NCBI GenBank assembly: GCA_017464475.1
Contig: JAFTZQ010000025.1
Coordinates: 1 to 44,403 of the forward strand
DNA length: 44,403 bases
Origin: Paludibacteraceae bacterium
GTDB lineage: Bacteria > Bacteroidota > Bacteroidia > Bacteroidales > Paludibacteraceae
Direction: 5' to 3'
Each line of letters starts with the position of its first letter. Position 1 is the first letter of the stretch. The notes beneath the pieces are model-generated. The model was not told the DNA's origin and did not search any database. It worked only from the letters and a program-made list of their open reading frames with translations. Of the stretch, positions 2,472-43,970 are shown in pieces. Position numbers and translations under genes: made by a program.

Positions 2472-2635
2472 AAACCCCTGTAAATAAAGCATTTGCAACG
2501 CTTTGAAAATTTTTAGAGCAGACAAACGGAGATTTCTGGAGTAAATCAGCACCAAAATCAGCCGCTCCGTCCGTGTAAAATCAGGCTTCGCCGCCACTTT
2601 CCGGGCGTGTCTTTTCTAATAGAGGGAAAAGGCTG

Positions 2636-2643
2636 TATTTTTG
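2636..2643 (+). promoter_or_regulatory. Promoter -7 element for tape measure gene
   Basis: TATTTTTG followed by CGC matches TAnnTTTG. It lies 17 nt before the ATG at 2661, giving a leader of about 10 nt. This argues that translation starts at 2661 rather than at the in-frame ATG at 2607, which lies upstream of the promoter. The -33 element is weak. Confidence 0.55.
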
Positions 2644-2660
2644 CGCAAAATTTACAAATC

Positions 2661-5600
2661 ATGTCTGACTATTCAACCAACGCGTCCGTCAATCTTCAGA
2701 TAAACGGACAACAAGCACAAGAGACGCTTGCCAACCTCAAAAAGGCAGCACTCAATCTGACCGAGCAGATTGCCAAAGCGGCTGCTGCCGGTGATAAGGT
2801 CACACTCAAAAAACTCCGCAAAGAGTTTTCCGATGTGAAGCGGCAAATCAAGGAAATGGAGTCCACCACTATGCAGGTGGAGTCCGTCCTTAAACGGCTC
2901 GACCATGCTTCGCCGCGTGATTTGCAGCGGACGCTTGCCACTTTGAACAAGCAGCTGGAGTACATGGAAAGAGGGTCGGAAGCATGGAATGCGCACACGC
3001 GGAAGATAAGAGCGGTCAAGGACGAGATTGCCAAGGTCAACGGGGAACTGGCGAAGTCGCAAACGCTGATTGAACGCTTCAACGCGATGTGGCAGACGTG
3101 GCAGACTGTCGCCGCAAGCGGCGTCCTCGGTCTGACCGGTGCAGTCATGGCAGGCAAGAAAGCCGTGCAGATGTATGCCGAGATGGAGCAGGAAATGGCG
3201 TCGGTGCGCAAGTACACCGGCATGACCGCCGAGCAAGTCGAACATCTTAACGAAGCGTTTAAGAAGATCGACACACGTTCATCGCGCGAAGAACTCAATC
3301 GCCTTGCCCAAGAAGCAGGCCGCCTCGGCAAAACTTCCGAGGAGGACGTTCTTGGTTTCGTTAAAGCGGCAGACCAAATCAATGTGGCGTTGGATGAGCT
3401 CGGAGAGGGGGCGACATTGCAACTTTCCAAGCTTACGTCCATATTTGGGGATGAAGAACGGCTTGGCACGGAACGGTCGCTCCTCGCTGTTGGTTCCGTC
3501 ATAAACGAGTTATCCCAGAACTGCACGGCAGGAGCTTCATATCTGGCACAATTCGGTCAACGACTTGCAGGCGTTGGCGCTCAAGCAGGCATGACCGTTC
3601 CGCAGGTCATGGCATTTGGCGCTGTTCTTGATTCCCAAGGACAGAAAGTTGAAATGTCAGCCACGGCTCTCTCCAAACTTATCATGAATCTTTTCAAGAA
3701 CACCGAGAAGATTGCCAACGCAACTGGTATGGACCTTGAAAAGTTTAACGCCGCCCTCAAAAGTTCTACGAACGAGGGTCTATTGATGTTGCTCAACCGC
3801 TTAAACGAGTTGGGCGATATGTCCGTCCTTGCCCCGGTCTTTGCAGACATGGGCGAGAACGGCGCTCGCGCTTCGGCGGTCATTTCGGCACTTGCCGGAA
3901 ACATCGACATGCTCATTTGGGAACAGGAAGAAGCCGCAAAAGCCTTTGAGGAAGGCACCTCAGTCACAAAGGAGTTTGAGGTGCAGAACAATACGGTGCA
4001 AGCCGGATTGGACAAAGCACGCAAAGGCTTTCAGGAAATGGCAATAGCACTTGGTCAAGAGCTAATGCCTGTAATGCGGCACTTCATATCGTCCACGTCT
4101 GCCACAATGCGTTTGATGCTTAAACTGGTGCAGTTTATCAAGGAACACAAGGCGGCAATTGCTTCCATTACTGCAGCAGTTGCCGCATATACTATTGCCG
4201 TCAATCTCGCCTTGATAAAGGAGAAACTCCATGCAGCACTCATTGCCGTCAAGACGGCTGCGCTGCATGTGCATAAAGTGGCTGTTCTCGCGGCTTCGGT
4301 GGCATATAACAAAATGACCGGCAACGTCGTCCGGGCAAACGCAGCTATGAAACTGCTTAACGCCACAATGATGTCTAATCCTTGGGGCTTGCTCGCTGCC
4401 GCCGTTGTCGGGGCTGGTGTGGCATTGTATGCTTTCATCAAGCGGCAGAAGGAAGCAAACAAGGAGCAGAACAATCTCACAGAGGCACAGAAGCGGCAAA
4501 TGCGCGTGCAGCAGCAGATAAACGAGCACAACAAAGCCATTGATGAGGAGTATGCCAAACAAGCCGGAACAGTCCAAAGTCTGACTAAGATTGTCAATAA
4601 CGACAACCTCTCTTTGGAGAAACGCCGTGAAGTCCTCAAACGCTTGCAGGAGATTGTCCCGGATTATCATGCTTCGCTTACGGATGAGGGCAAATTGATC
4701 AATGACAACAAGGACGCGCTCGACAAGTACCTTGTTTCGCTCAAGCAGTCCATCCGCATGAAGATGAACCAAGAGAAATTGGAGGATATTGCAACAAAAC
4801 AAATCCCTCTTGAAGATGAGATGAAGCGGCTTCAAGCGCAGGTTGATGAATGGGAGGAAGCAAACCGCATCTATAAAGAAATGCTGCAAACCGGTGAGGG
4901 CTATAAGAGCGAAGAAAATGTGAAGAAAGCCATTCGGGAAAACAACCACATGATCAGCCAATATACCCACCATATACGCTCGCTCAAAAAGGAGTGGCAG
5001 GAGTTGGAGGATGTGGCAAACGGCATCAGTCTTGACATGCCCGAACCTACGGGCAGCCCCAAACCCAATGCAGCGGCTCCTCCTGCCGGTGGAGATGATA
5101 AGAAGGGCAAAACAAACAAATTCCAAGCAGAGGATGATTGGAAGGAGCGTGAGCAAGCCCTCAATCGCATTGCGTACGCCAAGGGTGAAGCCGATTACGA
5201 CGCATACACCAAGCGTATGCTCGAAATCGAAGTCCAGTATAACAAGAAGAAACTTGCTCACACCGACCTTGCAGGGAATGAGCAGGTCACCATCGAGGCG
5301 GCGTACTATGAGGCTTTGAAAAAGCAGAAGAACAATGCCATTGAGGGAACAGTACAGCAAGAGGAAGCCGCTTACAAAGAGATCATGGCTGTCCTTCAGC
5401 AAAGGTATATGGACGGGGAACTATCGGCTCGGCAGTATCAAAACGCCATAGAACTTGCAGAACTGGAACACTTGCGCAAGGTTGCCGGTCTCTATGAAGA
5501 AGGGTCAAAAGAGCGTTTGAAAGCCGAGAAGAACTATCATGATACTTCCCTCAAGTACCAACAGAAACATTTGCAGGAGGACAAACGCCTGCAAGAGAAG

Positions 5601-6710
5601 TTCAGACAGGAGTTATTCACCAAGGCATACCAAACCACAGACACCGAAAGCTATGAGCGCGACCTTCACGCGCTGGAACTTGTGCAGGCGCAAATGCTCA
5701 AAGCAGTCGGTGACAACGCCAAGGACAGGCTCAAATTAGAGCGTGCCTTCCAAGAAGCGAAATACCGTCTCGGTCGCAAGTACAATGTCAAGAACGCCAA
5801 GGAGATGAAGAAATCCTACCGGTCGGCAATAGACGACATCGCCGATTGGCTCAAGTCTGACGGAGGTCAGGCTTTCACCGGTGCGCTCGAAACCATTTTG
5901 AGCGGTATGTCGTCTATCTTCTCGGGCATCTCCGATATGATACAGGCTGAACTTGACATTGAAACGGCCAAAATTCAATCGTCATACGACGCACAGATTT
6001 CAGCCGCAGAGGGCAATAAGTACCAAGAAGTACAGTTAGAGCAGCAAAAGCAAAAGGAGATGTCAAAGGCTAAAGCCGAAGCAAACAAGAAGATGTTTGC
6101 CATGCAGGTCATCCAAGCCGTTGCGCAGACTGCCATGTCTGCCATTTCTGCTTACTCCTCGGCTGCTGCAATCCCGGTTGTCGGTTTTATCCTGGCACCT
6201 ATTGCTGCTGCAATGGCCGTTGCTGCCGGAGCAATACAGATTGCATCCATTAAAAAGCAGCAACAAGCGTCTGAATCACAGGGCTATGCCGAAGGTGGAT
6301 TTACTCCTGCCGGACCGAAATACAAGGAAGTTGGCGTAGTCCATGCCGGTGAGTGGGTCGCTTCACAGCAACTGCTTGCAAACCCGCAAGCGAGGGCGAT
6401 GGTGAACACGCTCGACTATGCGCAGCGCACAAACCAAATGGGAGTGCTTTCTGCAGCTGATGTTTCGCGACAAATAACAGCACCAACGGTCGTTGCACAA
6501 GCCTCGCAAGACGGTCGGCTTGAGCGGTCGCTTGCAGCTACTGCGTCGGCCATAGCAGCATATAGTTCTACTATGGACGACCTCTCCAAGCGTCTCAACG
6601 AACCTTTTGTAACGGTGAATACTGTCACCGGCGATAAAGGCATTATGAAGGCACAGGAAGAGTATGATCAACTTATGAAGAATAAAACCCCTAAATCACG
6701 TAGGCAATGA
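2661..6710 (+). CDS. Phage tail tape measure protein
   Basis: 1349 residues from the ATG at 2661. The N-terminal 150 residues are coiled-coil-like (LKKAALNLTEQIAKAAAAGDK and after). A TP901-type tape measure core follows at about 160-420 (MEQEMASVRKYTGMTAEQVE). Hydrophobic stretches lie near 500-560 and 575-600 (NPWGLLAAAVVGAGVALYAF), then long charged coiled coils, and near 1150-1190 an Ala/Ile-rich membrane-like segment before a conserved-looking EGGFTPAGP tail. Tape measure proteins set tail length; at roughly 0.15 nm per residue this would mean a tail near 200 nm (inference). It overlaps the next gene by 4 nt (ATGA). Confidence 0.93.
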   Translation: MSDYSTNASVNLQINGQQAQETLANLKKAALNLTEQIAKAAAAGDKVTLKKLRKEFSDVKRQIKEMESTTMQVESVLKRLDHASPRDLQRTLATLNKQLEYMERGSEAWNAHTRKIRAVKDEIAKVNGELAKSQTLIERFNAMWQTWQTVAASGVLGLTGAVMAGKKAVQMYAEMEQEMASVRKYTGMTAEQVEHLNEAFKKIDTRSSREELNRLAQEAGRLGKTSEEDVLGFVKAADQINVALDELGEGATLQLSKLTSIFGDEERLGTERSLLAVGSVINELSQNCTAGASYLAQFGQRLAGVGAQAGMTVPQVMAFGAVLDSQGQKVEMSATALSKLIMNLFKNTEKIANATGMDLEKFNAALKSSTNEGLLMLLNRLNELGDMSVLAPVFADMGENGARASAVISALAGNIDMLIWEQEEAAKAFEEGTSVTKEFEVQNNTVQAGLDKARKGFQEMAIALGQELMPVMRHFISSTSATMRLMLKLVQFIKEHKAAIASITAAVAAYTIAVNLALIKEKLHAALIAVKTAALHVHKVAVLAASVAYNKMTGNVVRANAAMKLLNATMMSNPWGLLAAAVVGAGVALYAFIKRQKEANKEQNNLTEAQKRQMRVQQQINEHNKAIDEEYAKQAGTVQSLTKIVNNDNLSLEKRREVLKRLQEIVPDYHASLTDEGKLINDNKDALDKYLVSLKQSIRMKMNQEKLEDIATKQIPLEDEMKRLQAQVDEWEEANRIYKEMLQTGEGYKSEENVKKAIRENNHMISQYTHHIRSLKKEWQELEDVANGISLDMPEPTGSPKPNAAAPPAGGDDKKGKTNKFQAEDDWKEREQALNRIAYAKGEADYDAYTKRMLEIEVQYNKKKLAHTDLAGNEQVTIEAAYYEALKKQKNNAIEGTVQQEEAAYKEIMAVLQQRYMDGELSARQYQNAIELAELEHLRKVAGLYEEGSKERLKAEKNYHDTSLKYQQKHLQEDKRLQEKFRQELFTKAYQTTDTESYERDLHALELVQAQMLKAVGDNAKDRLKLERAFQEAKYRLGRKYNVKNAKEMKKSYRSAIDDIADWLKSDGGQAFTGALETILSGMSSIFSGISDMIQAELDIETAKIQSSYDAQISAAEGNKYQEVQLEQQKQKEMSKAKAEANKKMFAMQVIQAVAQTAMSAISAYSSAAAIPVVGFILAPIAAAMAVAAGAIQIASIKKQQQASESQGYAEGGFTPAGPKYKEVGVVHAGEWVASQQLLANPQARAMVNTLDYAQRTNQMGVLSAADVSRQITAPTVVAQASQDGRLERSLAATASAIAAYSSTMDDLSKRLNEPFVTVNTVTGDKGIMKAQEEYDQLMKNKTPKSRRQ

Positions 6711-10011: not shown

Positions 10012-10053
10012 TTTTTTCGGAGTTTGCCGTAACTTATTGATTTACAGCGTCTG

Positions 10054-10142
10054 CGGAGAGTGAGGGATTCGAACCCCCGGAACCACTAGCTGGGTTCACT
10101 GCATTTCGAGTGCAGCTCTTTCGACCACTCAGACAACTTTCC
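10054..10142 (-). tRNA. tRNA-Ser(CGA), prophage-proximal copy
   Basis: 89 nt, class II tRNA with a long variable arm. The anticodon loop CTCGAAA gives CGA, which reads UCG. The acceptor stem is GGAAAGT against ACTCTCC and contains one A-C mismatch (position 4 with 69). The T arm reads GGGGGTTCGAATCCC. It follows the second tRNA-Ser on the same strand and is followed by the prophage, so its 3' part may have been supplied by phage DNA. Confidence 0.93.
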
Positions 10143-10205
10143 TTTTGATCGCTATGTAAATCAACGTTTTACCTGCTGCACCCCTTGTAAATCAAGGCTT
10201 TAAAG

Positions 10206-10294
10206 CGGAGAGTGAGGGATTCGAACCCCCGATACGACGTAATGCGTATACCGCATTTCGAGTGCGGCTCTTTCGACCACTCAGACAACTCTCC
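10206..10294 (-). tRNA. tRNA-Ser(CGA), promoter-proximal copy
   Basis: 89 nt, same anticodon CGA as its neighbour, with a fully paired acceptor stem GGAGAGT/ACTCTCC. It shares a 27-bp block at its 3' end (from 10205) with the other copy, but its variable arm differs. The two genes are 63 nt apart and appear to be transcribed together from the promoter at 10344-10374. Confidence 0.93.
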
Positions 10295-35676: not shown

Positions 35677-35715
35677 AATAATTTTGAAAAAAAATGCATT
35701 TTACCCCTCATTTTT

Positions 35716-35746
35716 TTGCATATTTGACGAAAAAGTAGTAATTTTG
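35716..35746 (+). promoter_or_regulatory. Promoter of signalling cluster
   Basis: TTG (35716-35718), 20 nt, TAATTTTG (35739-35746), then CGCCG. A short reading frame (35756-35788, MKIMTPNGRE) begins just after the expected start site and overlaps the first gene. Confidence 0.78.
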
Positions 35747-35774
35747 CGCCGTAAAATGAAAATAATGACCCCAA

Positions 35775-37820
35775 ATGGACGAGAATAAAAAGAAATTAGC
35801 GAGAGCGGGAGGATTCTGGATTTTATTGGTAGCCGGACTGGTTCTAGAGGCAACGGCTTGTCTTCAATATTTCTACAGCCGCACAGCGATCCAGCATGAG
35901 GCGGAGAATAGGGCGCGTGCTGAACTGCGTGCTGCCGAGTTGGAGATCAATGCCGCGACTGCGGAACTGGAGGCGGCGGCGAAGATGCTGACCAACATGG
36001 TGGAGCTTAGCCTGGATAACCCGGAGGGCATGTACACCTGCACGCGTACCTTGGTTGAGACATTGGATAATGTGGAGAGCGCCGGAGTGGCGTTCATCGC
36101 GGATTATTATCCCTCCAAAGGCCGCTGGTATGAGATATGCAGCAGCCGGATCTCTTCCGGCGATAGCGCGCGCATATACACGCGTCAAATAGGTAATAAG
36201 GACCACGACTATTTCCAAGCCGAGTGGTTCAATAATGGACTCACGATTGACAGCACTTGGTGGTCCGAGCCCTATCTGGACGATGCGGGCGCGCAGGCGA
36301 TGGTCGTCAGCTGCTCTTACCCTGTCCATGACAAGGAGGGCAAAGTGGTTGCGGTAGTTTGCGTCGATCTGTCCATCAGCCGTCTCCACCGCGTCTCGGA
36401 GTACCTCCAGGTCTATAAGGACAGCTATTATTCGATCGCTTCGGCTACGGGAGTGGACATCGTTGCCCGTCCGGACACCATGCCGGGGCGCAAGTATATG
36501 ATCTTCGAGGAGGAGATTGATGCGACGGGGTGGCATATTTCAATCATTATTCCGGAGGACATCTTGTACGCCGACCTGCGCCATGTGGGACTTATCGTGA
36601 CGATTCTGATGATTTTAGGCCTCGCGCTGCTGATTTTTATCATGTATCATAGCGGGCGTAATATCCAGAATCTGATCTCCGCGAACTCCCAGAAGGAGCG
36701 AATGATGAACGAACTGGAGATCGCTCAAACAATCCAGCGCGCGATGTTGCCGAAGGTCTTTCCGCCTTTTGCCGACCGTCTTGATCTGAATATCTATGGT
36801 ATGGTCGATCCGGCGAAGGAGATAGGCGGCGATTTGTATGATTTCTATGTGCGCCACGACAAACTCTTCTTCTGCGTCGGCGATGTCAGCGGAAAAGGTG
36901 TTCCGGCTTCGCTTGTCATGGCGACGATCCGGTCCCTCTTCCGTAGCGTCACGGCGCACGAAGAGCACGCGCATCTGATCGCAACCCAGATTAACGACAC
37001 CCTCGCTGAGCAGAACGACCAGAACATGTTCGTCACACTCTTTATCGGCGTCTTGGACCTCACGAACGGACATCTCCATTATTGCAACGCCGGGCATAAC
37101 GCGCCTCTGCTCAACGGCGAGATGTTGACTGTCTTGCCGAATCTGCCGATCGGTGTCCTCACCGGCTTTGAGTATCAGTCGCAGGAGATTGACCTGCATC
37201 CGTCCGACCTCCTCTTCCTTTATACGGATGGACTGACCGAGGCGGAGAACACACGCCATGAATTGTTTGGCGAGTCGCGTATGTTGGAGGAGGTGAAAAA
37301 AATGCTTGCTCTCCGGCCGCGCCAAATCGTGGACGCCATGCGTGCTACAGTGGCTGCTTTCGCAGGAGACGCCCAGCAGAGCGACGACCTCACCATGCTC
37401 GCGATCCGTTTCCAACTCCCTGCGATCGTCATGCGAAATGATATCCAGCAGATTCCAACCCTCGCCGAATGGGTGGATGGGCTGAACGTGCCGGCGGAGT
37501 TCAATATGCCGATCAACTTGGCGCTCGAAGAAGCGGTCAGCAATGTGATGCTGTATGCTTATCCCGATCGCACGGACGGTAAAGTCTTCGTCGAGTATCT
37601 GGAGGTGCCGACCGAGCAAGGACGGCAAATGATCTTCACGATCTCCGACTCGGGAATTCCGTTCGATCCGACCCAAAAATCGGAAGCGGACATCACCCTC
37701 TCGGCGGAAGAGCGCGCTATCGGCGGACTCGGAATACATCTCGTGCGCCAGCTCATGGACCAAATCATCTACGAACGCATAGATGACAAGAACATCCTTA
37801 CCCTCATCAAAAAATTGTAA
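35775..37820 (+). CDS. Sensor / SpoIIE-type PP2C phosphatase / HATPase kinase fusion
   Basis: 681 residues. Membrane segments at about 14-33 and 271-290 flank a periplasmic Cache-like sensor (35-265). In the cytoplasm a coiled linker leads to a PP2C domain of SpoIIE/RsbU type (about 315-547) with metal-binding Asp353 (IGGDLYDFY), Asp370 (VGDVSGKG), Asp485 (YTDGLTEA) and Asp537/538 (QSDDLT). The end (about 555-681) is a GHKL ATPase of RsbW/SpoIIAB type with N box LALEEAVSN (Glu585, Asn590), DSGIPFDP and GGLGIHLV. One protein thus carries both phosphatase and anti-sigma-type kinase. The expected partner, a STAS protein, is next. Confidence 0.93.
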   Translation: MDENKKKLARAGGFWILLVAGLVLEATACLQYFYSRTAIQHEAENRARAELRAAELEINAATAELEAAAKMLTNMVELSLDNPEGMYTCTRTLVETLDNVESAGVAFIADYYPSKGRWYEICSSRISSGDSARIYTRQIGNKDHDYFQAEWFNNGLTIDSTWWSEPYLDDAGAQAMVVSCSYPVHDKEGKVVAVVCVDLSISRLHRVSEYLQVYKDSYYSIASATGVDIVARPDTMPGRKYMIFEEEIDATGWHISIIIPEDILYADLRHVGLIVTILMILGLALLIFIMYHSGRNIQNLISANSQKERMMNELEIAQTIQRAMLPKVFPPFADRLDLNIYGMVDPAKEIGGDLYDFYVRHDKLFFCVGDVSGKGVPASLVMATIRSLFRSVTAHEEHAHLIATQINDTLAEQNDQNMFVTLFIGVLDLTNGHLHYCNAGHNAPLLNGEMLTVLPNLPIGVLTGFEYQSQEIDLHPSDLLFLYTDGLTEAENTRHELFGESRMLEEVKKMLALRPRQIVDAMRATVAAFAGDAQQSDDLTMLAIRFQLPAIVMRNDIQQIPTLAEWVDGLNVPAEFNMPINLALEEAVSNVMLYAYPDRTDGKVFVEYLEVPTEQGRQMIFTISDSGIPFDPTQKSEADITLSAEERAIGGLGIHLVRQLMDQIIYERIDDKNILTLIKKL

Positions 37821-37848
37821 ATTGTAATCGTAAATTGTAAATAAAATT

Positions 37849-38151
37849 ATGTCAACTCAAATTCAAGAATCCGGTGATCAAATTATTGCCTATTTCGACG
37901 GACGGCTGGACACAGCGGCAGCTGTTGCTACGGCGGAGCAAGTGAAACCTCTTCAGGAGGCTTCACACAAAGAGATCATCCTCGATTGTACCAAGCTGGA
38001 GTACATCTCTTCGTCCGGTCTGCGTATTTTCCTTTCTATCCGCAAGGATGCTGCCACGCACGGTTCCAAAGTGATTGTTCGCAACATCAACGCCGATATT
38101 CGCCAGGTCTTTATCATGACCGGATTTATCAGCCTTTTTGAGATACAATGA
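37849..38151 (+). CDS. STAS domain anti-sigma factor antagonist
   Basis: 100 residues, RsbV/SpoIIAA-like. The phosphorylation site loop reads LEYISSSGLRIFL; Ser55 or Ser56 would be phosphorylated by an RsbW-type kinase and dephosphorylated by a PP2C enzyme, both activities being present in the preceding protein. The usual Asp before the serine is Ser54 here. The 28-nt gap upstream consists of ATTGTAA-type repeats. The stop overlaps the next start (ATGATG). No sigma factor gene is nearby, so the final target of the switch is unknown. Confidence 0.93.
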   Translation: MSTQIQESGDQIIAYFDGRLDTAAAVATAEQVKPLQEASHKEIILDCTKLEYISSSGLRIFLSIRKDAATHGSKVIVRNINADIRQVFIMTGFISLFEIQ

Positions 38152-39206
38152 TGGATTCGCTTGATCTACATTGCCAACTCATCTTGGACGAGTACCGTGA
38201 CTCGCTGCCGCTCTTGGAGCAGATGAAAGAGGAGGTGCTTGCGAAGCTTCGCGAAGCCTTGGACCGCAACGGACTTTATGTCACGGCGATCGAAGCGCGT
38301 ATCAAAACCGAAGAGAGTTTGGCGGGCAAGTTGGCGCTCAAGGGCGCTAAATACGCGACGCTCGCGGATATAACGGATGTCCTCGGCGCGCGAATTATCA
38401 CGTTCTACACCGACGATGTGGACCGGGTTGCCGCGATGGCGGAGCAGATGTTTGATATCGACTGGGACAACTCGGTGGACAAACGCCGCCTCCACCAGCT
38501 TGATAGTTTTGGCTATAACTCGCTCCATTATATCTGTCGCTTGCCGAATTATCCGCTGCGTTTCGAGCTCCAGCTCCGCACGACCCTCCAGCACGCGTGG
38601 GCGTCGATCAACCATGACACGGGATATAAGTCCGGCATTGAGATTCCGCGCGAGTATCTGCGTCGTATGAACCGACTTGCCGGGATGTTAGAGATGGTGG
38701 ACGATGAGTTCAGCCGTATCCGTACGGAGATCAACGACTACCGCCGCCGTGTCCAGCAACTGGTCAGCACAGGACGGCTGGACGAAGTGCTGCTCGATGG
38801 CGACACTTTCCAGTCCTACCTACAGGCGCGACCCTTTGACGCTCTCAATAAGCGGATCGCGGCGATTAACCAGGCGGAGATCCAAGATGCACCCCTTATT
38901 CGCTACCTGCGCGTCCTCAAGGAACTCCAATGCAACACCTTGGGAGATGTCAGCCGTCTTATCACGCGCTATGAAGAGGACGCTTATCGCTTGGCGAGAC
39001 ACCAGCTTGGTAACACCGACTTGGATATTATCTCTTCCGCGGTCGGGCTGCAAAATATCTGTATCGTTTGTGTCCTCAGCACGGGAGGAGGCAAGATCGG
39101 CTTGGAGCGGCTTTTCGACATCCTCAACGGGCATAACAGCCATAATGCCGAGCTGGCGGAACTGACGTACACCCAAGCTCTCAACCTCCCCTTCATGCAA
39201 AAATAA
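38148..39206 (+). CDS. RelA/SpoT-type (p)ppGpp synthetase
   Basis: 352 residues. The nucleotidyltransferase domain of RelA/SpoT enzymes occupies about 25-200: IEARIKTEESLAGKL (ATP site), DITDVLGARI with Asp77, SFGYNSLHY with Tyr123 and the catalytic FELQLRTTLQHAWA with Glu140, followed by INHDTGYKS. No HD hydrolase domain, TGS or ACT is present, so it is a small alarmone synthetase with an extra helical C-terminal domain (about 205-352) not recognised. It would transfer pyrophosphate from ATP to GDP or GTP. Starts at 38148 or the next codon at 38151, overlapping the STAS gene. Confidence 0.92.
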   Translation: MMDSLDLHCQLILDEYRDSLPLLEQMKEEVLAKLREALDRNGLYVTAIEARIKTEESLAGKLALKGAKYATLADITDVLGARIITFYTDDVDRVAAMAEQMFDIDWDNSVDKRRLHQLDSFGYNSLHYICRLPNYPLRFELQLRTTLQHAWASINHDTGYKSGIEIPREYLRRMNRLAGMLEMVDDEFSRIRTEINDYRRRVQQLVSTGRLDEVLLDGDTFQSYLQARPFDALNKRIAAINQAEIQDAPLIRYLRVLKELQCNTLGDVSRLITRYEEDAYRLARHQLGNTDLDIISSAVGLQNICIVCVLSTGGGKIGLERLFDILNGHNSHNAELAELTYTQALNLPFMQK

Positions 39207-39239
39207 TTTTTAATTTTTAATATTTAATTTCACATTCCC

Positions 39240-40136
39240 ATGACCCAGATTGATCTCAACGACTACATCCGCACGGGCGAAGGAGCCAACGGTGCCAGTT
39301 ATAACCACAAGTCGGACCCCAATATCATGCTCAAACTCTATTTCCGCAATTTTGATGCAGCTGCGTTGGAGTTGGAGCTGGCGCAAAAAGTGTACGCCTT
39401 GGGCATCCCTTCGCCGGAACCCGGAGACTTGGTGACGGACGGTAAGCAGGTCGGAATACGTTTCCGTCGTCTGGAAGGCAAACGCTCTTACTCGCGCGCT
39501 TGCGGAGACGAACCGGAACGCACGGAGGAGTACGCACGCGAGTTCGCGCGCCTCTGTATCAAACTGCACTCCATCCATGTTCCCACGGACCGGTTTGAGT
39601 CGGTCAAAGACCGTCTATACCACATGCTGGACACGAATCCCGACTTTACTCCCGACCAGAAACAGAAGATCCACGATTTCATTGCTGCTGCGCCGGAAGC
39701 TGATACGGCTATTCATGGCGACCTCCAGTTCTCGAACGGTATCTTCACCGAGAAAGACGGTGTGCGTACGCCGTATTTCATCGACCTCGGCGATTTCTGC
39801 TACGGCTATCCCATGTTCGACCTCGGTATGGTCTATCTCTGCTGCTGCCTCAATAACGAAGCGTGGACCATGGAGCAATACCACATGTCCAATGCCACCG
39901 CGCGACGTTTCTGGGACGCCTTTGCCGCAGAGTATTTCCTCTCGCCCGAATGTCCGCTCATTCCGTACGGATGGAAGGATAAGAACGGCAAACCGCTCTT
40001 CGGACCCGGAGCTGATCTCAACGAAGTGGAGCGCCAAATCAAGATCTATGCAGGGCTCAAAACACTCATCGTTGAGCGTGACACCCATTGCCCGATGCCC
40101 GAGTTCCGAGCTATGCTGGAGGGTACTATTTACTAA
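39240..40136 (+). CDS. Aminoglycoside phosphotransferase-like kinase
   Basis: 298 residues, APH/choline kinase fold. GEGANGAS (13-20) is the nucleotide loop, Lys32 (IMLKLYF) the likely ATP lysine, HGDLQFSN (159-166) the catalytic Brenner motif with Asp161 and Asn166, and IDLGD (181-185) the metal-binding segment. It resembles the TIGR02172-type paralogue family known from Fibrobacter. The substrate is unknown: small molecule or protein are both possible. Resistance is unlikely given the signalling context. It lies 33 nt after the alarmone synthetase gene. Confidence 0.88.
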   Translation: MTQIDLNDYIRTGEGANGASYNHKSDPNIMLKLYFRNFDAAALELELAQKVYALGIPSPEPGDLVTDGKQVGIRFRRLEGKRSYSRACGDEPERTEEYAREFARLCIKLHSIHVPTDRFESVKDRLYHMLDTNPDFTPDQKQKIHDFIAAAPEADTAIHGDLQFSNGIFTEKDGVRTPYFIDLGDFCYGYPMFDLGMVYLCCCLNNEAWTMEQYHMSNATARRFWDAFAAEYFLSPECPLIPYGWKDKNGKPLFGPGADLNEVERQIKIYAGLKTLIVERDTHCPMPEFRAMLEGTIY

Positions 40137-40150
40137 TCATTCTTGCATCT

Positions 40151-40735
40151 ATGGCGAATAAATATATAGATACCGACCTCTTGGACCGTGCAATCATCTT
40201 TGCGGTCAACGCCCATCATAACACGGAGCGCAGAGGCAAAGGTTTTCCGTACATCGTCCATCCTCTCGAAGCGGTGGAGATAGTAGCCACCATCACCTCC
40301 GACCAGGAACTTCTGGCGGCGGCGGCACTCCACGATACGATTGAAGACACAGACGTCACGATCGACCAACTCCGCTCCCTCTTTGGCGACAGAGTAGCGC
40401 AACTCGTTCAGGACGAAAGCGATGTCTTCATCGACGGCGTCTCCGAAGCGGATAGTTGGCATGCACGCAAAGAGGCGGCAATCAACCGTCTCGCGGCGGC
40501 GCCTTTTGACGCAAAAGTCGTAGCGATGGGCGATAAACTAAGTAACATGCGCGCGATATGGCGCGACTATCAAATCAAAGGCGACGACCTTTGGTCGATC
40601 TTCCATGTCACGGACAAGTTCTCTCACGAGTGGCATTACCGCGGACTCGCAGATGCTCTCTCGCCCCTCGCCGACACTTTTGCCTACCAAGAGTTCCTCC
40701 GCCTCATCAACGATGTCTTCTATCCGCATCTCTAA
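40151..40735 (+). CDS. Mesh1-like HD hydrolase, probable (p)ppGpp hydrolase
   Basis: 194 residues from the ATG at 40151. A single HD domain of the SpoT/Mesh1 type: His37 (YIVHPLEA), His61-Asp62 (ALHDTIEDT), Glu65-Asp66, and Asp128 with Asn132 (AMGDKLSNMR). The spacing of His61, Asp62, Glu65 and Asp66, and of the later Asp/Asn pair, matches human MESH1. Such enzymes remove the 3' pyrophosphate of (p)ppGpp in a Mn-dependent way; related ones act on NADPH or nucleotides. Together with the synthetase two genes upstream it would form a make-and-break pair. Confidence 0.86.
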   Translation: MANKYIDTDLLDRAIIFAVNAHHNTERRGKGFPYIVHPLEAVEIVATITSDQELLAAAALHDTIEDTDVTIDQLRSLFGDRVAQLVQDESDVFIDGVSEADSWHARKEAAINRLAAAPFDAKVVAMGDKLSNMRAIWRDYQIKGDDLWSIFHVTDKFSHEWHYRGLADALSPLADTFAYQEFLRLINDVFYPHL

Positions 40736-40749
40736 ACACTAAACATTAA

Positions 40750-41553
40750 TTGGAAGTCTCTTTTGACAACATAGTAAACGCCCGCGACTTGGGCGGCATG
40801 ATCGGCGCCGGAGGGCACGCCGTACGACCGCATCGTATCTTGCGTACAGCGCACCTCCATGACGCTTCGCCTGCCGACTTAAAACGTCTCCATGACGAAT
40901 TCAACCTCGTCCGCATCTTCGATTTCCGCTCTTTCGGAGAAGCGGAAGCCTTGCCGGATCAGCCTGTGGAGGGTGCAACCCATCATCTCCTGCCGACCAT
41001 CGACCTTAGCGCCGAGAGACTGACAGAGCAGCCGATTCCCCAAGAAGCTTTCCTCGACCTCGAAAGCCATATCGTCAACTATTCCTTCTATCCCGAGGTG
41101 CAAGCCATGGCGGCAAACATGTACCCCTCGCTCATCCGTAGCGAATATTCCCAACTCCAGTACGCCACCTTCCTTCGCCTGATCGTGGAGAGCCCCGAGG
41201 ACGGCGGAATACTCTGGCATTGTTTCCAAGGCAAGGACCGGACAGGGTGGGGAGCTGCGTATCTGCTCTTTGCCCTCGGGGTGGACAGGGAAGCGATCAT
41301 AGCGGACTTTGACCTCTCCAACGCTGCGTACCGCACACTCGTGGATCGCCTCAATGCAGAGATCATCCGTCGTGGCGGAGGCGAACCCGAGATGGAAGTT
41401 ATCCGCGCCTTCATGGGCGTTTCCACCAATAATTTCATCCGCACTCTCAACCTCATCGACCGTGAGTTTGGCGGCATGTCCTCCTATCTGGAGAACCAGC
41501 TCCTCCTCACCTCCGCCGACCTCCACCTCCTCCGCCGCCGATTCCTCCTCTAA
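40750..41553 (+). CDS. Tyrosine/dual-specificity protein phosphatase
   Basis: 267 residues from a TTG at 40750. The N-terminal NARDLGG motif and the CX5R loop HCFQGKDRTGWG (Cys158, Arg164) define the Y_phosphatase3 family, soluble Cys-based phosphatases that act on phosphotyrosine, phosphoinositides or other phosphate esters. Cytoplasmic, no signal peptide. As the last gene of the cluster it might reverse a phosphorylation made by the APH-type kinase, but this is only inference. 14 nt separate it from the hydrolase gene. Confidence 0.9.
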   Translation: MEVSFDNIVNARDLGGMIGAGGHAVRPHRILRTAHLHDASPADLKRLHDEFNLVRIFDFRSFGEAEALPDQPVEGATHHLLPTIDLSAERLTEQPIPQEAFLDLESHIVNYSFYPEVQAMAANMYPSLIRSEYSQLQYATFLRLIVESPEDGGILWHCFQGKDRTGWGAAYLLFALGVDREAIIADFDLSNAAYRTLVDRLNAEIIRRGGGEPEMEVIRAFMGVSTNNFIRTLNLIDREFGGMSSYLENQLLLTSADLHLLRRRFLL

Positions 41554-41589
41554 TCTGCCATTTTGTCAGCCTTATTCTGCCAAAAACCC

Positions 41590-41706
41590 TTTGGCACAAA
41601 CTTTGTCTTACTCATAGCGAACCTGGTTCGACTAGATCAACTGGATCCCCTGGTTCGACTGGTTAAACTGGATAAACTGGATTATTAACTAAAAAAACAT
41701 ACAACT
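41590..41706 (+). promoter_or_regulatory. dnaK upstream element and leader shared with groES
   Basis: TTGGCA (41591-41596), TTTGTC starting 11 nt later (41602-41607), 5 nt, CATAGCGA (41613-41620), then six 9-bp units ending in ACTAG or CTGG (41627-41680), AACTAAAAAA and ACATACAAC before the ATG. GG-N10-GT at 41593-41606 recalls a sigma-54 site with a changed last base. TGCCAAA/TTTGGCA (41578-41596) forms an inverted repeat over the element. No TAnnTTTG promoter is obvious. Confidence 0.82.
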
Positions 41707-43632
41707 ATGAGCAAGATTATTGGAATTGACCTCGGTACCACGAACTCGTGTGTAGCCGTAATGGAGGGTAACGAACCTATCGTTATTGCCAACTCGGAAG
41801 GTAAACGTACTACTCCTTCTGTTGTCGGATTTATTGATGGTGGTGAGCGCAAAGTGGGAGACCCTGCTAAACGTCAAGCCATTACCAACCCGACCAAAAC
41901 TGTTTATTCGATCAAGCGTTTCATGGGCGAGACCTACGACCGCTTGCAGTCTGAGATCGCACGCGTTCCTTATAAAGTATCTAAGGGCGACAACAACACC
42001 CCGCGTGTGGACATCGACGGACGTCTCTATACCCCGCAGGAGATATCGGCGATCATCCTCCAGAAGATGAAAAAGACCGCAGAGGAGTACCTCGGACAGG
42101 AGGTTACCGACGCAGTCATCACCGTTCCTGCGTACTTCAACGACTCGCAGCGTCAGGCTACCAAGGAAGCCGGTGAGATCGCAGGACTCAATGTCCGCCG
42201 TATTGTCAACGAGCCGACCGCAGCGGCACTCGCGTACGGTCTTGATAAGTCCAACAAGGATATGAAGATTGTGGTCTTCGACTGCGGTGGCGGTACCCAC
42301 GATGTTTCGGTCCTCGAACTCGGTGACGGTGTCTTTGAGGTAAAAGCAACCGATGGTGATACCCACCTCGGTGGTGACGATTTCGACCACCGTATTATCG
42401 AATGGCTCGTTTCGGAGTTCAAGGCGGAGAACGGCGGAGCCGATCTCTCTAAGGACCCGATGGCTATGCAGCGACTCAAAGAGGCGGCTGAGAAAGCGAA
42501 GATCGAACTTTCTTCCTCGACCTCTACGGAAATCAACCTGCCGTATATCATGCCGGTCAACGGAGTTCCTGCGCACCTCGTTAAGACCCTGACCCGTGCT
42601 AAATTCGAGCAGCTCATCGACGATCTGATCCAGCGTACGATCGCTCCGTGTCGTACTGCTCTTGAACACGCGGGACTCAAAACATCCGATATTGACGAGA
42701 TTATCCTTGTGGGTGGTTCGACCCGTATCCCGGCTATCCAACAGGCTGTTGAGAAATTCTTCGGCAAAGCGCCGTCCAAGGGCGTTAACCCGGACGAAGT
42801 AGTAGCTGTCGGAGCTGCCATCCAAGGCGGTGTCCTCACCGGTGAAGTAAAGGATGTACTCCTCCTTGATGTCACCCCGCTGTCCCTCGGTATCGAGACC
42901 ATGGGAGGTGTCATGACCAAGATGATTGAGGCGAACACCACCATCCCGACCAAGAAAACAGAGACTTTCACCACAGCGGTGGATAACCAGCCTTCTGTAG
43001 AGATCGTCATCTACCAGGGCGAGCGGCCTATGGCGGCGCAAAATAAACTCCTCGGACGCTTCCACCTCGATGGTATCATGCCGGCGCGTCGTGGTGAACC
43101 GCAGATCGAAGTAACCTTCGATATCGATGCCAACGGTATCTTGAATGTAACTGCAAAGGATAAAGCAACCGGCAAGGATGCGAAGATCCGTATCGAAGCT
43201 TCGTCCGGACTTTCCGATGAGGAGATCAAGCGGATGAAAGCCGAAGCCGAAGCCAATGCCGAAGCCGATAAGAAGGCGAAAGAGCAAGCCGAGAAACTCA
43301 ACCGTGCTGACGCTACGATCTTCCAAACCGAGAAACAACTCGCGGAGATCGGCGATAAGATCCCGGCGGACAAGAAAGCTCCGATTGAGGAAGCACTCAA
43401 GAAACTGAAAGAGGCGTACGAAAAACGCGACGCAGATGCCTGCGAAGCGGCTAACAACGAACTCATGACCGCTTTCCAAGCCGCTTCCGCTGAGATGTAC
43501 GCTGCCCAGCAGCAGGCTCAGCAGAATGCCGGTCAACCCGGTAATGCCGGAACCTCCGGCAACTCCGGAAACAACGGCAATAACGGCGACAACCCTTCCG
43601 CCGAAGACGTTGACTTCGAAGAAGTAAAATAA
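41707..43632 (+). CDS. dnaK: Chaperone DnaK
   Basis: 641 residues, Hsp70. The ATPase domain (1-385) opens with [18 protein letters not shown] and holds [15 protein letters not shown] (Cys and His in place of the common Leu and Phe) and [11 protein letters not shown]; the substrate-binding domain carries [13 protein letters not shown]. The C-terminal lid is Ala/Glu/Lys-rich, followed by a Gly/Asn linker and the end VDFEEVK. It works with DnaJ and GrpE, not encoded here. It stands alone, between the signalling cluster and the rRNA operon. Confidence 0.98.
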
Positions 43633-43698
43633 TAACCCTCCCGCTTTCCCGAATAGGTTTCGATATATCGAAATCTCGAAATCTCGGAAAATCGGTCT

Positions 43699-43728
43699 AT
43701 CGCCCCGCTCTTCATAGAGTGGGGCGAT
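43699..43728 (+). terminator. Terminator-like hairpin after dnaK
   Basis: ATCGCCCCGCTC pairs with GAGTGGGGCGAT (one wobble) around TTCATA; the trailing sequence TTCGTTCTCTTT is T-rich but interrupted. Confidence 0.7.
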
Positions 43729-43749
43729 TTCGTTCTCTTTCCATCTCTT

Positions 43750-43800
43750 TACATATGCGCGCACGCGCGTTCCTTATATACGCGTATAGGCACGCGTGCC
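43750..43800. other. Alternating purine-pyrimidine tract and two 12-bp palindromes
   Basis: 21 nt of strict purine-pyrimidine alternation (43750-43770) are followed by the perfect palindromes TATACGCGTATA (43777-43788) and GGCACGCGTGCC (43789-43800). Such DNA can adopt Z form or cruciforms. The remaining stretch to the rRNA promoter (43801-43938) is A/T-rich with no gene visible. Confidence 0.6.
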
Positions 43801-43938
43801 CAACACCATCATACCCCCAAATCTCCTTTTCTCACTCTTATCCCCCAAAAACACCCAAAAAATCTTAAAATTGCTATTATTGATTTTCAATCAGTTACAA
43901 AGAAAATGCATTTTTTATGCAATTTTTTTGCTAAAATA

Positions 43939-43970
43939 TTTGGTCAGTTCAAAAATTTGTAGTACCTTTG
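43939..43970 (+). promoter_or_regulatory. rRNA operon promoter
   Basis: TTTG (43939-43942), 20 nt, TACCTTTG (43963-43970), then GCACTCGCTTTCG. The 16S gene begins about 230 nt downstream. The leader contains A/T-rich TTTGAATTT/CTTCAAATTT repeats (44090-44135). Confidence 0.85.

What the first reader, a model, noticed from the sequence alone, without database searches (positions are those of the whole stretch)
35775..41553. Signalling cluster joining a partner-switch module to an alarmone synthetase/hydrolase pair, a kinase and a phosphatase
Six co-directional, closely spaced or overlapping genes encode, in order: a Cache sensor-PP2C-HATPase fusion, its likely STAS partner, a RelA/SpoT synthetase, an APH-fold kinase, a Mesh1-like hydrolase and a Cys-based phosphatase. 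Three opposed activity pairs sit in one transcription unit: kinase/phosphatase on STAS, making/breaking (p)ppGpp, and APH kinase/CX5R phosphatase. This suggests an envelope-sensed switch that sets alarmone level locally. The STAS-synthetase overlap (ATGATG) hints that unphosphorylated STAS may bind the synthetase, whose C-terminal domain is unexplained. Motifs are seen directly; the circuit is inference.
Basis: partly seen in the sequence, partly recalled or inferred. Interest (0 to 1): 0.82.

Follow-up and report, generated by a model that had tools for sequence, protein, structure and literature searches.

The report
Partner-switch operon for alarmone turnover
A recurring gene cluster in gut Bacteroidales, with relatives in Lachnospiraceae, puts enzymes that look like makers and breakers of the starvation signal (p)ppGpp together with an envelope sensor and a phosphorylation switch; such switches are known to drive another signal, c-di-GMP, but I found no report of one wired to this signal.

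Summary
In detail: six co-directional genes (35775-41553) encode PDC/Cache-PP2C-HATPase, STAS, a RelA/SpoT-type synthetase, an APH-fold kinase, a Mesh1-like HD hydrolase and a CX5R phosphatase, with gaps of 28, -4, 33, 14 and 14 bases. Among 81 related loci (80 plus the window), STAS lies within 5 kb of the synthetase in 73, a SpoIIE-type protein in 68, HD in 64, APH in 58, the phosphatase in 40. Gene order is scrambled (19 labelled orders, at least 21 changes on the synthetase tree), and clusters also occur in Bacillota. Catalytic residues and the STAS serine are nearly invariant. Divergent synthetases lack these neighbours. The synthetase's C-terminal domain marks the lineage. Fusions join STAS-APH, HD-APH and, with a weak STAS part, HD-STAS-APH, so the best physical link of STAS is to the kinase; its link to the synthetase is neighbourhood only. 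Best reading: a partner switch like SiaABCD, acting on alarmone enzymes. The module is near certain; direct target, substrates and sign are untested. New variant of a known kind.

The parts
35715..35746 (+). Bacteroidetes-type promoter match TTTG-N20-TAATTTTG, 28 bases before the first gene
   Evidence: 11 matches in window, 0.43 expected; no other + strand match from 35747 to 43938. The consensus itself is recalled.
35775..37820 (+). PDC/Cache sensor, SpoIIE-type PP2C phosphatase (about 36858-37412) and RsbW-type HATPase kinase (about 37461-37811) in one protein
   Evidence: metal Asp and N/G1/G2 key residues kept in relatives
37849..38151 (+). STAS protein, presumed phospho-switch; Ser55 codon at 38011-38013
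   Evidence: Ser55 72 of 72 aligned STAS homologs; its role as phospho-acceptor is by likeness to SpoIIAA (recalled)
38148..38151 (+). ATGA overlap of the STAS stop and the synthetase start
38148..39206 (+). RelA/SpoT-type synthetase, SAS-like catalytic domain about residues 40-206
   Evidence: catalytic motif residues 80 of 80
38775..39203 (+). C-terminal domain of the synthetase (residues 210-352), specific to this lineage
39240..40136 (+). APH-fold kinase, TIGR02172-like (216.9 bits, below the 228.2 cut-off)
   Evidence: K32, HGD-x4-N and Asp182 61 of 61 in cluster homologs
40151..40735 (+). Mesh1/SAH-like HD hydrolase
   Evidence: HD-x2-ED 63 of 63
40750..41553 (+). Y_phosphatase3 (CX5R) phosphatase, TTG start; optional member
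   Evidence: Cys and Arg 41 of 41

Best explanation
A partner-switch signalling operon whose outputs are alarmone-turnover enzymes. The membrane protein senses an envelope or extracellular cue through its Cache domain; its HATPase domain phosphorylates STAS at Ser55 and its PP2C domain removes the phosphate (family knowledge plus intact motifs). Unphosphorylated STAS then docks on co-encoded effectors and changes their activity: the APH-fold kinase (direct link by natural STAS-APH fusions), the HD hydrolase that is itself fused to APH in other members, and, inferred from gene neighbourhood and the lineage-specific C-terminal domain, the synthetase. The result would be a cue-dependent shift of the (p)ppGpp (or related alarmone) level beside, not instead of, the long RSH enzymes. 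Shown: genes, motifs, recurrence, fusions. Inferred: phosphorylation, binding, substrates, sign.
For: 81 loci, within 5 kb of the synthetase on either strand: STAS 73, SpoIIE-labelled 68 (a few may be HATPase-only), separate HATPase 9, HD 64 (+1 fused), APH 58 (+2 fused), phosphatase 40, none in 3. Reordering: 19 labelled orders, at least 21 changes on the synthetase tree. Cross-phylum: L141 (Lachnospiraceae), L152 (Firmicutes) and L241 (family of L141's genome); the first two group with Bacteroidales rows. Fusions: HD-APH in L147, L193, L280, L286; HD-STAS-APH in L141; 13 STAS-APH ORFs, one with HATPase; Pfam confirms both domains over cut-off in the 4 STAS-APH and 4 HD-APH proteins scanned. 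Active-site residues kept in the clusters. Synthetase nearest GTP pyrophosphokinase/YjbM/YwaC structures; HD nearest guanosine polyphosphate pyrophosphohydrolase structures. Long RelA/SpoT frames also in the own genome (748 and 480 aa) and in 13 of 13 other genomes tested. Precedent: STAS or STAS-like partners control diguanylate cyclases (PMC8457831, introduction and passages).
Against: No enzyme or binding data. No STAS-synthetase fusion seen. Covariation could not separate the expected STAS-HATPase pair from the others. 3 of 81 synthetases stand alone, and 6 of 8 strong synthetase hits in 150 genomes of the L141 family have no cluster genes in the stretches fetched, two of them cut near a contig end. 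Of 20 TIGR02172 loci of that family 12 have no clear cluster-type gene beside the kinase, and an HGD-x4-N motif was not found by pattern in 4 of 21 APH ORFs, two of them STAS-APH fusions. The STAS part of the L141 fusion is weak (21 bits, under Pfam's cut-offs) and lacks the serine. Small alarmone hydrolases can also cut NADPH (PMC9765508, passages). Patchy spread: 4 of 198 genomes, own included, in an order-wide sample. The 81 loci are related, so counts are not independent.
Confidence: 0.6

Rival explanations
1. STAS directly activates the synthetase, as SiaC activates SiaD, and the other genes are auxiliary.
For: ATGA overlap of STAS and synthetase; STAS immediately before the synthetase in the commonest order (24 of 81 loci with the full six-gene order); C-terminal domain found in the cluster lineage but not in 22 viral-contig relatives, 23 divergent Bacteroidota ones or L245-L247 (three of the viral ORFs, L292, L301 and L311, are short or cut); SiaC-SiaD precedent (PMC8457831, introduction and passages).
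Against: In several orders STAS lies far from the synthetase (SYN-HD-APH-SpoIIE-STAS, 6 loci). Fusions tie STAS to APH, not to the synthetase. L242-L244 carry the C-terminal domain without neighbours.
Confidence: 0.35
2. Toxin-antitoxin or anti-phage system: the synthetase is a toxSAS and the HD enzyme neutralises its product, as aTfaRel does for FaRel.
For: Synthetase beside a small alarmone hydrolase; C-terminal domain of unknown role; viral contigs carry synthetases, mostly of the same length; PADLOC candidate PDC-S33 matches at 9e-14.
Against: Catalytic domain far nearer GTP pyrophosphokinase/YjbM structures (69.7 bits best) than 7ztb and 9erv (18.2 bits; that these are CapRel is recalled). 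A sensor-kinase-phosphatase-STAS set is unlike the TA operons described in PMC11782079 (passages). The viral-contig relatives show no cluster genes in the stretches held and no match to the C-terminal domain, 0 of 22 each.
Confidence: 0.08
3. STAS controls only the APH kinase; alarmone enzymes travel along for a shared physiological reason without direct contact.
For: 13 STAS-APH fusion ORFs, none with a synthetase found in the stretch fetched; some with PP2C, HATPase or STAS beside them (L275, L281, L284).
Against: HD is fused to APH in five ORFs. Several clusters hold synthetase and STAS without APH: L134, L139, L144, L194, L241.
Confidence: 0.25

Closest known systems
SiaABCD of Pseudomonas aeruginosa (with HsbA-HsbD and BgrV-BgrR)
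   Same: PP2C sensor, HATPase kinase and a STAS or STAS-like switch controlling a nucleotide second-messenger synthase; unphosphorylated SiaC activates SiaD (PMC8457831, introduction and passages).
   Different: Output here is a RelA/SpoT-type synthetase plus hydrolase instead of a GGDEF cyclase; PP2C and HATPase are fused; an APH kinase is added; binding not shown.
RsbU-RsbV-RsbW / SpoIIE-SpoIIAA-SpoIIAB partner switches
   Same: Domain set and phosphoserine logic (PMC11418112, passages).
   Different: No sigma factor among the window's six genes; RsbW-like domain fused behind PP2C.
Small alarmone synthetases (RelP/RelQ type)
   Same: Catalytic domain and motifs.
   Different: Extra C-terminal domain of about 140 residues and a partner-switch neighbourhood.
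FaRel-aTfaRel toxSAS module
   Same: Synthetase encoded with a small alarmone hydrolase (PMC11782079, passages).
   Different: No type II-like antitoxin recognised; sensor and switch genes present; catalytic domain closer to GTP pyrophosphokinase/YjbM structures.
TIGR02172 (Fibrobacter paralog family)
   Same: APH-fold kinase matching the whole model.
   Different: Score below the curated cut-off; fused to STAS or HD in relatives.

Membership tests
STAS partner-switch system | PP2C/SpoIIE phosphatase, RsbW-type HATPase and STAS encoded together with intact motifs | tested here: met
   STAS with a SpoIIE- or HATPase-labelled gene near the synthetase in 71 of 81 loci
STAS partner-switch system | kinase and phosphatase act on the STAS serine | not testable with these tools
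   needs purified proteins; Ser55 kept 72 of 72
SiaABCD-like second-messenger control | second-messenger synthase in the same cluster | tested here: met
   (RelA/SpoT-type, not GGDEF)
SiaABCD-like second-messenger control | STAS-like protein binds and activates the synthase | tested here: inconclusive
   (no power); no fusion found
Small alarmone synthetase | SYNTH domain with intact ATP and acceptor motifs | tested here: met
Small alarmone synthetase | in general a single-domain protein (wording of PMC3153485, passages, which names exceptions) | tested here: not met
   lineage-specific C-terminal domain
Small alarmone hydrolase (Mesh1-like) | HD_4 domain with HD-x2-ED and related motifs | tested here: met
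toxSAS toxin-antitoxin | catalytic domain closer to toxSAS than to RelP/RelQ | tested here: not met
   limited to solved structures; which entries are toxSAS is recalled
toxSAS toxin-antitoxin | toxicity neutralised by a cognate antitoxin | not testable with these tools
   needs expression
TIGR02172 | score above the NCBIfam cut-off of 228.2 bits | tested here: not met
   216.9 bits

The most novel reading that the evidence does not exclude
A STAS-organised alarmone complex: the phospho-switch holds a hydrolase, a synthetase and an APH-fold kinase in one assembly and flips net flow between making and breaking the alarmone, with the APH kinase acting as a new enzyme of alarmone or nucleotide metabolism, or as a kinase of the alarmone enzymes. 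The lineage-specific C-terminal domain of the synthetase would be its STAS docking part.
Probability: 0.25. Interest if true: 0.88.

Novelty: new variant of a known kind. Interest (0 to 1): 0.7.

Why it matters
Known inputs to (p)ppGpp enzymes are mostly cytoplasmic (ribosome, tRNA, metabolites, transcription; recalled). Here an envelope sensor and a reversible protein phosphorylation would set alarmone level, a link seen for c-di-GMP but not found for alarmones in my searches of open-licence papers (judged mostly from listings). It would connect two large bodies of work, give STAS/SpoIIE proteins of Bacteroidales an output, and suggest a role for TIGR02172-type kinases, whose substrate I do not know.

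Tried and rejected
Covariation between cluster proteins: 61 to 108 pairs, effective number 17 to 69; the positive control STAS-HATPase was not distinguishable, so nothing is read from it. Structure prediction of the synthetase: not accepted. C-terminal domain by Pfam: no family in 4 of 5 scanned, one NAC hit at E 0.17; PDB search of it gave TAL-effector repeats at 7e-8 with no single stretch passing on its own, treated as repeat artefact. L169 looked like a fusion (516 aa), but the extra N-terminal part (translated) looks like a spurious extension with no recognisable STAS sequence. toxSAS and defence reading: disfavoured. Plasmids: 28 of 72,556 records match the synthetase, none with one place over 80% of it. 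TIGR02172 across Bacteroidota: 14 of 395 genomes, all but the window weak. Paper searches with no hit or none that looked relevant: (held no paper; of the others I opened passages of five papers, and saw the rest as listings). Choices: one search used hand-made labels for 60 of 69 rows, with the commonest order lumped whether or not its last genes were present, and left out L242-L244; one search used 66 of 70 non-redundant relatives (L169, L171, L190, L197 left out) plus the window; searches took the 21 best matches after L141's own out of the longer list.
Full report
What is there. The six genes of the finding are present at the stated coordinates: a PDC/Cache-PP2C-HATPase protein (35775-37820), STAS (37849-38151), a RelA/SpoT-type synthetase (38148-39206), an APH-fold kinase (39240-40136), a Mesh1-like HD hydrolase (40151-40735) and a CX5R phosphatase of the Y_phosphatase3 family (40750-41553). 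Gaps are 28, -4, 33, 14 and 14 bases, then 153 to dnaK. A Bacteroidetes-type promoter match (consensus recalled) stands at 35715-35746; 11 such matches occur in the window against 0.43 expected, and the next on the + strand is at 43939. This fits one transcription unit.

Where it comes from. The genome G000 is 1.90 Mb in 36 contigs, 71% complete. The nearest synthetase in the tree (97%) is in L154, an uncultured Bacteroidales assembly RUG13776. 26 of 37 same-genus genomes (own included) carry the synthetase and 0 of 24 others of the order in that sample. In an evenly drawn family sample 53 of 250 have any match at E 1e-3; the close ones (E of 1e-100 or better) lie in this genus and three others of the family. 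In a phylum sample 23 of 395 have any match at 1e-3, the best apart from the own genome at 2e-41; in an order-wide sample 4 of 198, own included, at 1e-40. The spread is patchy.

Recurrence. In 20 same-genus loci SpoIIE-STAS-synthetase is found 20 of 20, APH 19, HD 18, phosphatase 15. In these 80 plus the window, within 5 kb of the synthetase on either strand and E under 1e-8 by best phmmer label: STAS 73, SpoIIE 68 (a few may be HATPase-only), separate HATPase 9, HD 64 plus one fusion, APH 58 plus two fusions, phosphatase 40, a cytidylate-kinase-like protein 14 (PF13189 by Pfam on two); nothing in 3 (L151, L153, L198). Flanking genes are mostly not shared: the largest unlabelled family near the synthetase occurs in 12 of 81 loci. 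The loci are related to one another, so these are not independent counts; on the synthetase tree, 60 hand-labelled rows with 19 orders need at least 21 changes. Examples: SpoIIE-STAS-SYN-APH-HD-PTP (24 of 81); SYN-HD-APH-SpoIIE-STAS (6); HD-SpoIIE-SYN-CMPK-HATPase-STAS; HATPase-STAS-PTP-SYN. Controls: 0 of 20 divergent Bacteroidota synthetase loci, 0 of 3 more (L114, L115, L129) and 0 of 22 viral contigs (6.5 to 12.8 kb held) have any of the other genes at the thresholds used.

Other phylum. L141 (titled Lachnospiraceae SIG281) and L152 (titled Firmicutes UBA1764) carry clusters. Their genomes show one long RSH frame each, G690 also a 249-residue frame; 10 of the 11 other genomes tested show two, G702 one. 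In a quick, unrooted tree L141 and L152 group with five Bacteroidales rows (7-row set, SH-aLRT 95) inside a larger Bacteroidales set, which suggests transfer. In 150 genomes drawn from the family of G690 (L141's genome), 8 have a synthetase hit at E under 1e-50: L141's own, one more cluster (L241, SYN-SpoIIE-STAS), and six without cluster genes in the stretches fetched (L242-L247; L242 and L243 are cut near a contig end).

Fusions. Single ORFs join HD and APH (L147, L193; L280, L286), HD, STAS and APH (L141; the STAS part is weak, 21.6 and 21.0 bits, under Pfam's cut-offs), and STAS and APH (13 ORFs in 12 of 20 stretches fetched around the 21 best TIGR02172 matches after L141's own in the same 150 genomes), one of them with HATPase (L281). 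Pfam finds both domains over cut-off in the 4 STAS-APH proteins scanned. In the 13 STAS-APH proteins the YISSAGLR site keeps the serine; in the L141 fusion that position is Phe. Neighbours: SpoIIE-type gene (L275, L281, L284; L282 about 4.4 kb away), separate STAS (L277, L280, L281), HD (L277, L284), phosphatase (L287), short synthetase plus phosphatase (L279); the other 12 of 20 stretches show no cluster-type gene beside the kinase, save a weak HATPase hit in L276. So the best physical link of STAS is to APH, and of APH to HD; the synthetase is linked by neighbourhood.

Active sites. In the cluster homologs aligned (beside the window): STAS Ser55 72 of 72; synthetase R51, K53, S57, K61, D77, R82, Y123, H127, E140, Q142, R144 80 of 80; HD residues H61, D62, E65, D66 63 of 63; APH K32, H159, D161, N166, D182 61 of 61; phosphatase Cys158 and Arg164 41 of 41; PP2C D353 63 of 64, D370 63 of 65, D485 63 of 63, D537 and D538 64 of 64; HATPase E585, N590, D625, G627 and the GGLG stretch 60 of 60. 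In the TIGR02172 set an HGD-x4-N motif was not found by pattern in 4 of 21 APH ORFs (two of them STAS-APH fusions), so some of those kinases may be changed or inactive. The cluster enzymes are expected to be active; which substrates they use is not shown.

The C-terminal domain. A profile of residues 210-352, built from the 67-row alignment, finds L241 (1e-23), L242 (2e-14), L244 (6e-16) and L243 (1e-7, partial), but 0 of 22 viral-contig relatives (L311 is cut before the domain, L292 and L301 are short), 0 of 23 divergent Bacteroidota synthetases (three from same-genus genomes) and none of L245-L247, although all of these match the catalytic domain. It has no convincing Pfam or PDB match. It marks the lineage to which clusters belong; L242-L244 show that it can also occur without neighbours. 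That it is a docking site is inference.

Mechanism and rivals. By family knowledge the HATPase phosphorylates and the PP2C dephosphorylates STAS. STAS or STAS-like partners controlling diguanylate cyclases are established: SiaC-SiaD, HsbA-HsbD, BgrV-BgrR (PMC8457831, introduction and passages), and co-occurrence has been used to propose the same in Campylobacterota (PMC9239204, passages). I therefore put 0.6 on a partner switch acting directly on at least one of the co-encoded enzymes to change alarmone level, 0.35 on direct synthetase control, 0.25 on APH alone being the target, and 0.08 on a toxin-antitoxin system (overlapping statements). Against alarmone certainty: small alarmone hydrolases may also cut NADPH (PMC9765508, passages).

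Known or new. A RelA/SpoT survey lists Bacteroidia mainly with Rel and RshB, 1-3 RSHs in 8 genomes (PMC3153485, passages), and a STAS review holds no mention of ppGpp or alarmone (PMC8256260, term search). Searches that could have met a STAS-alarmone link gave no hit or none that looked relevant; the library is open-licence PMC only and most hits were judged from listings. I rate it a new variant of a known kind.

Noticed in passing
L274-L278, L281-L284, L287, L288, L290: STAS-APH fusion proteins are frequent among TIGR02172-type kinases of the L141 family, one with HATPase in the same chain (L281); possibly a partner-switch-kinase family of its own.
   Followed up: partly
L292-L313: 22 viral contigs carry synthetases mostly of the same length as the window's but with no match to its C-terminal domain and no cluster genes in the stretches held.
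   Followed up: partly
L279:7330-10025: Short RelA/SpoT synthetase (239 aa), APH kinase and Y_phosphatase3 in a row on one strand.
   Followed up: partly
L147, L139, L184: NMT1/THI5-like periplasmic binding protein next to the SpoIIE gene (Pfam on L147 and L184; L139 by sequence likeness), a possible ligand-presenting partner of the sensor.
   Followed up: no
L184, L191, L206: A Na+/H+ exchanger-type gene sits between SpoIIE and STAS (Pfam on L184 only).
   Followed up: no
L150, L182, L198, L241: Genes that look like an amino-acid ABC transporter pair (by sequence start only) lie near the synthetase (in L241 about 8 kb away).
   Followed up: no
L150:3568-4479: A DAGK/YegS-type kinase gene between STAS and the synthetase; L181 and L199 have a gap of similar size there (not examined).
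   Followed up: no
L194:10892-11410: A gene that looks like an ECF sigma factor (by sequence start only) two genes behind the synthetase.
   Followed up: no
window 2607-6710: Phage minor tail protein (PF10145), so perhaps a prophage remnant or island, about 3.3 kb from two tandem tRNA-Ser(cga) genes at 10053-10294.
   Followed up: no
window 38772-39206: Short TAL-repeat-like match in the synthetase C-terminal domain; no single stretch passes on its own, probably chance.
   Followed up: partly
L123:13059-15370: A second SpoIIE-STAS pair behind the cluster.
   Followed up: no
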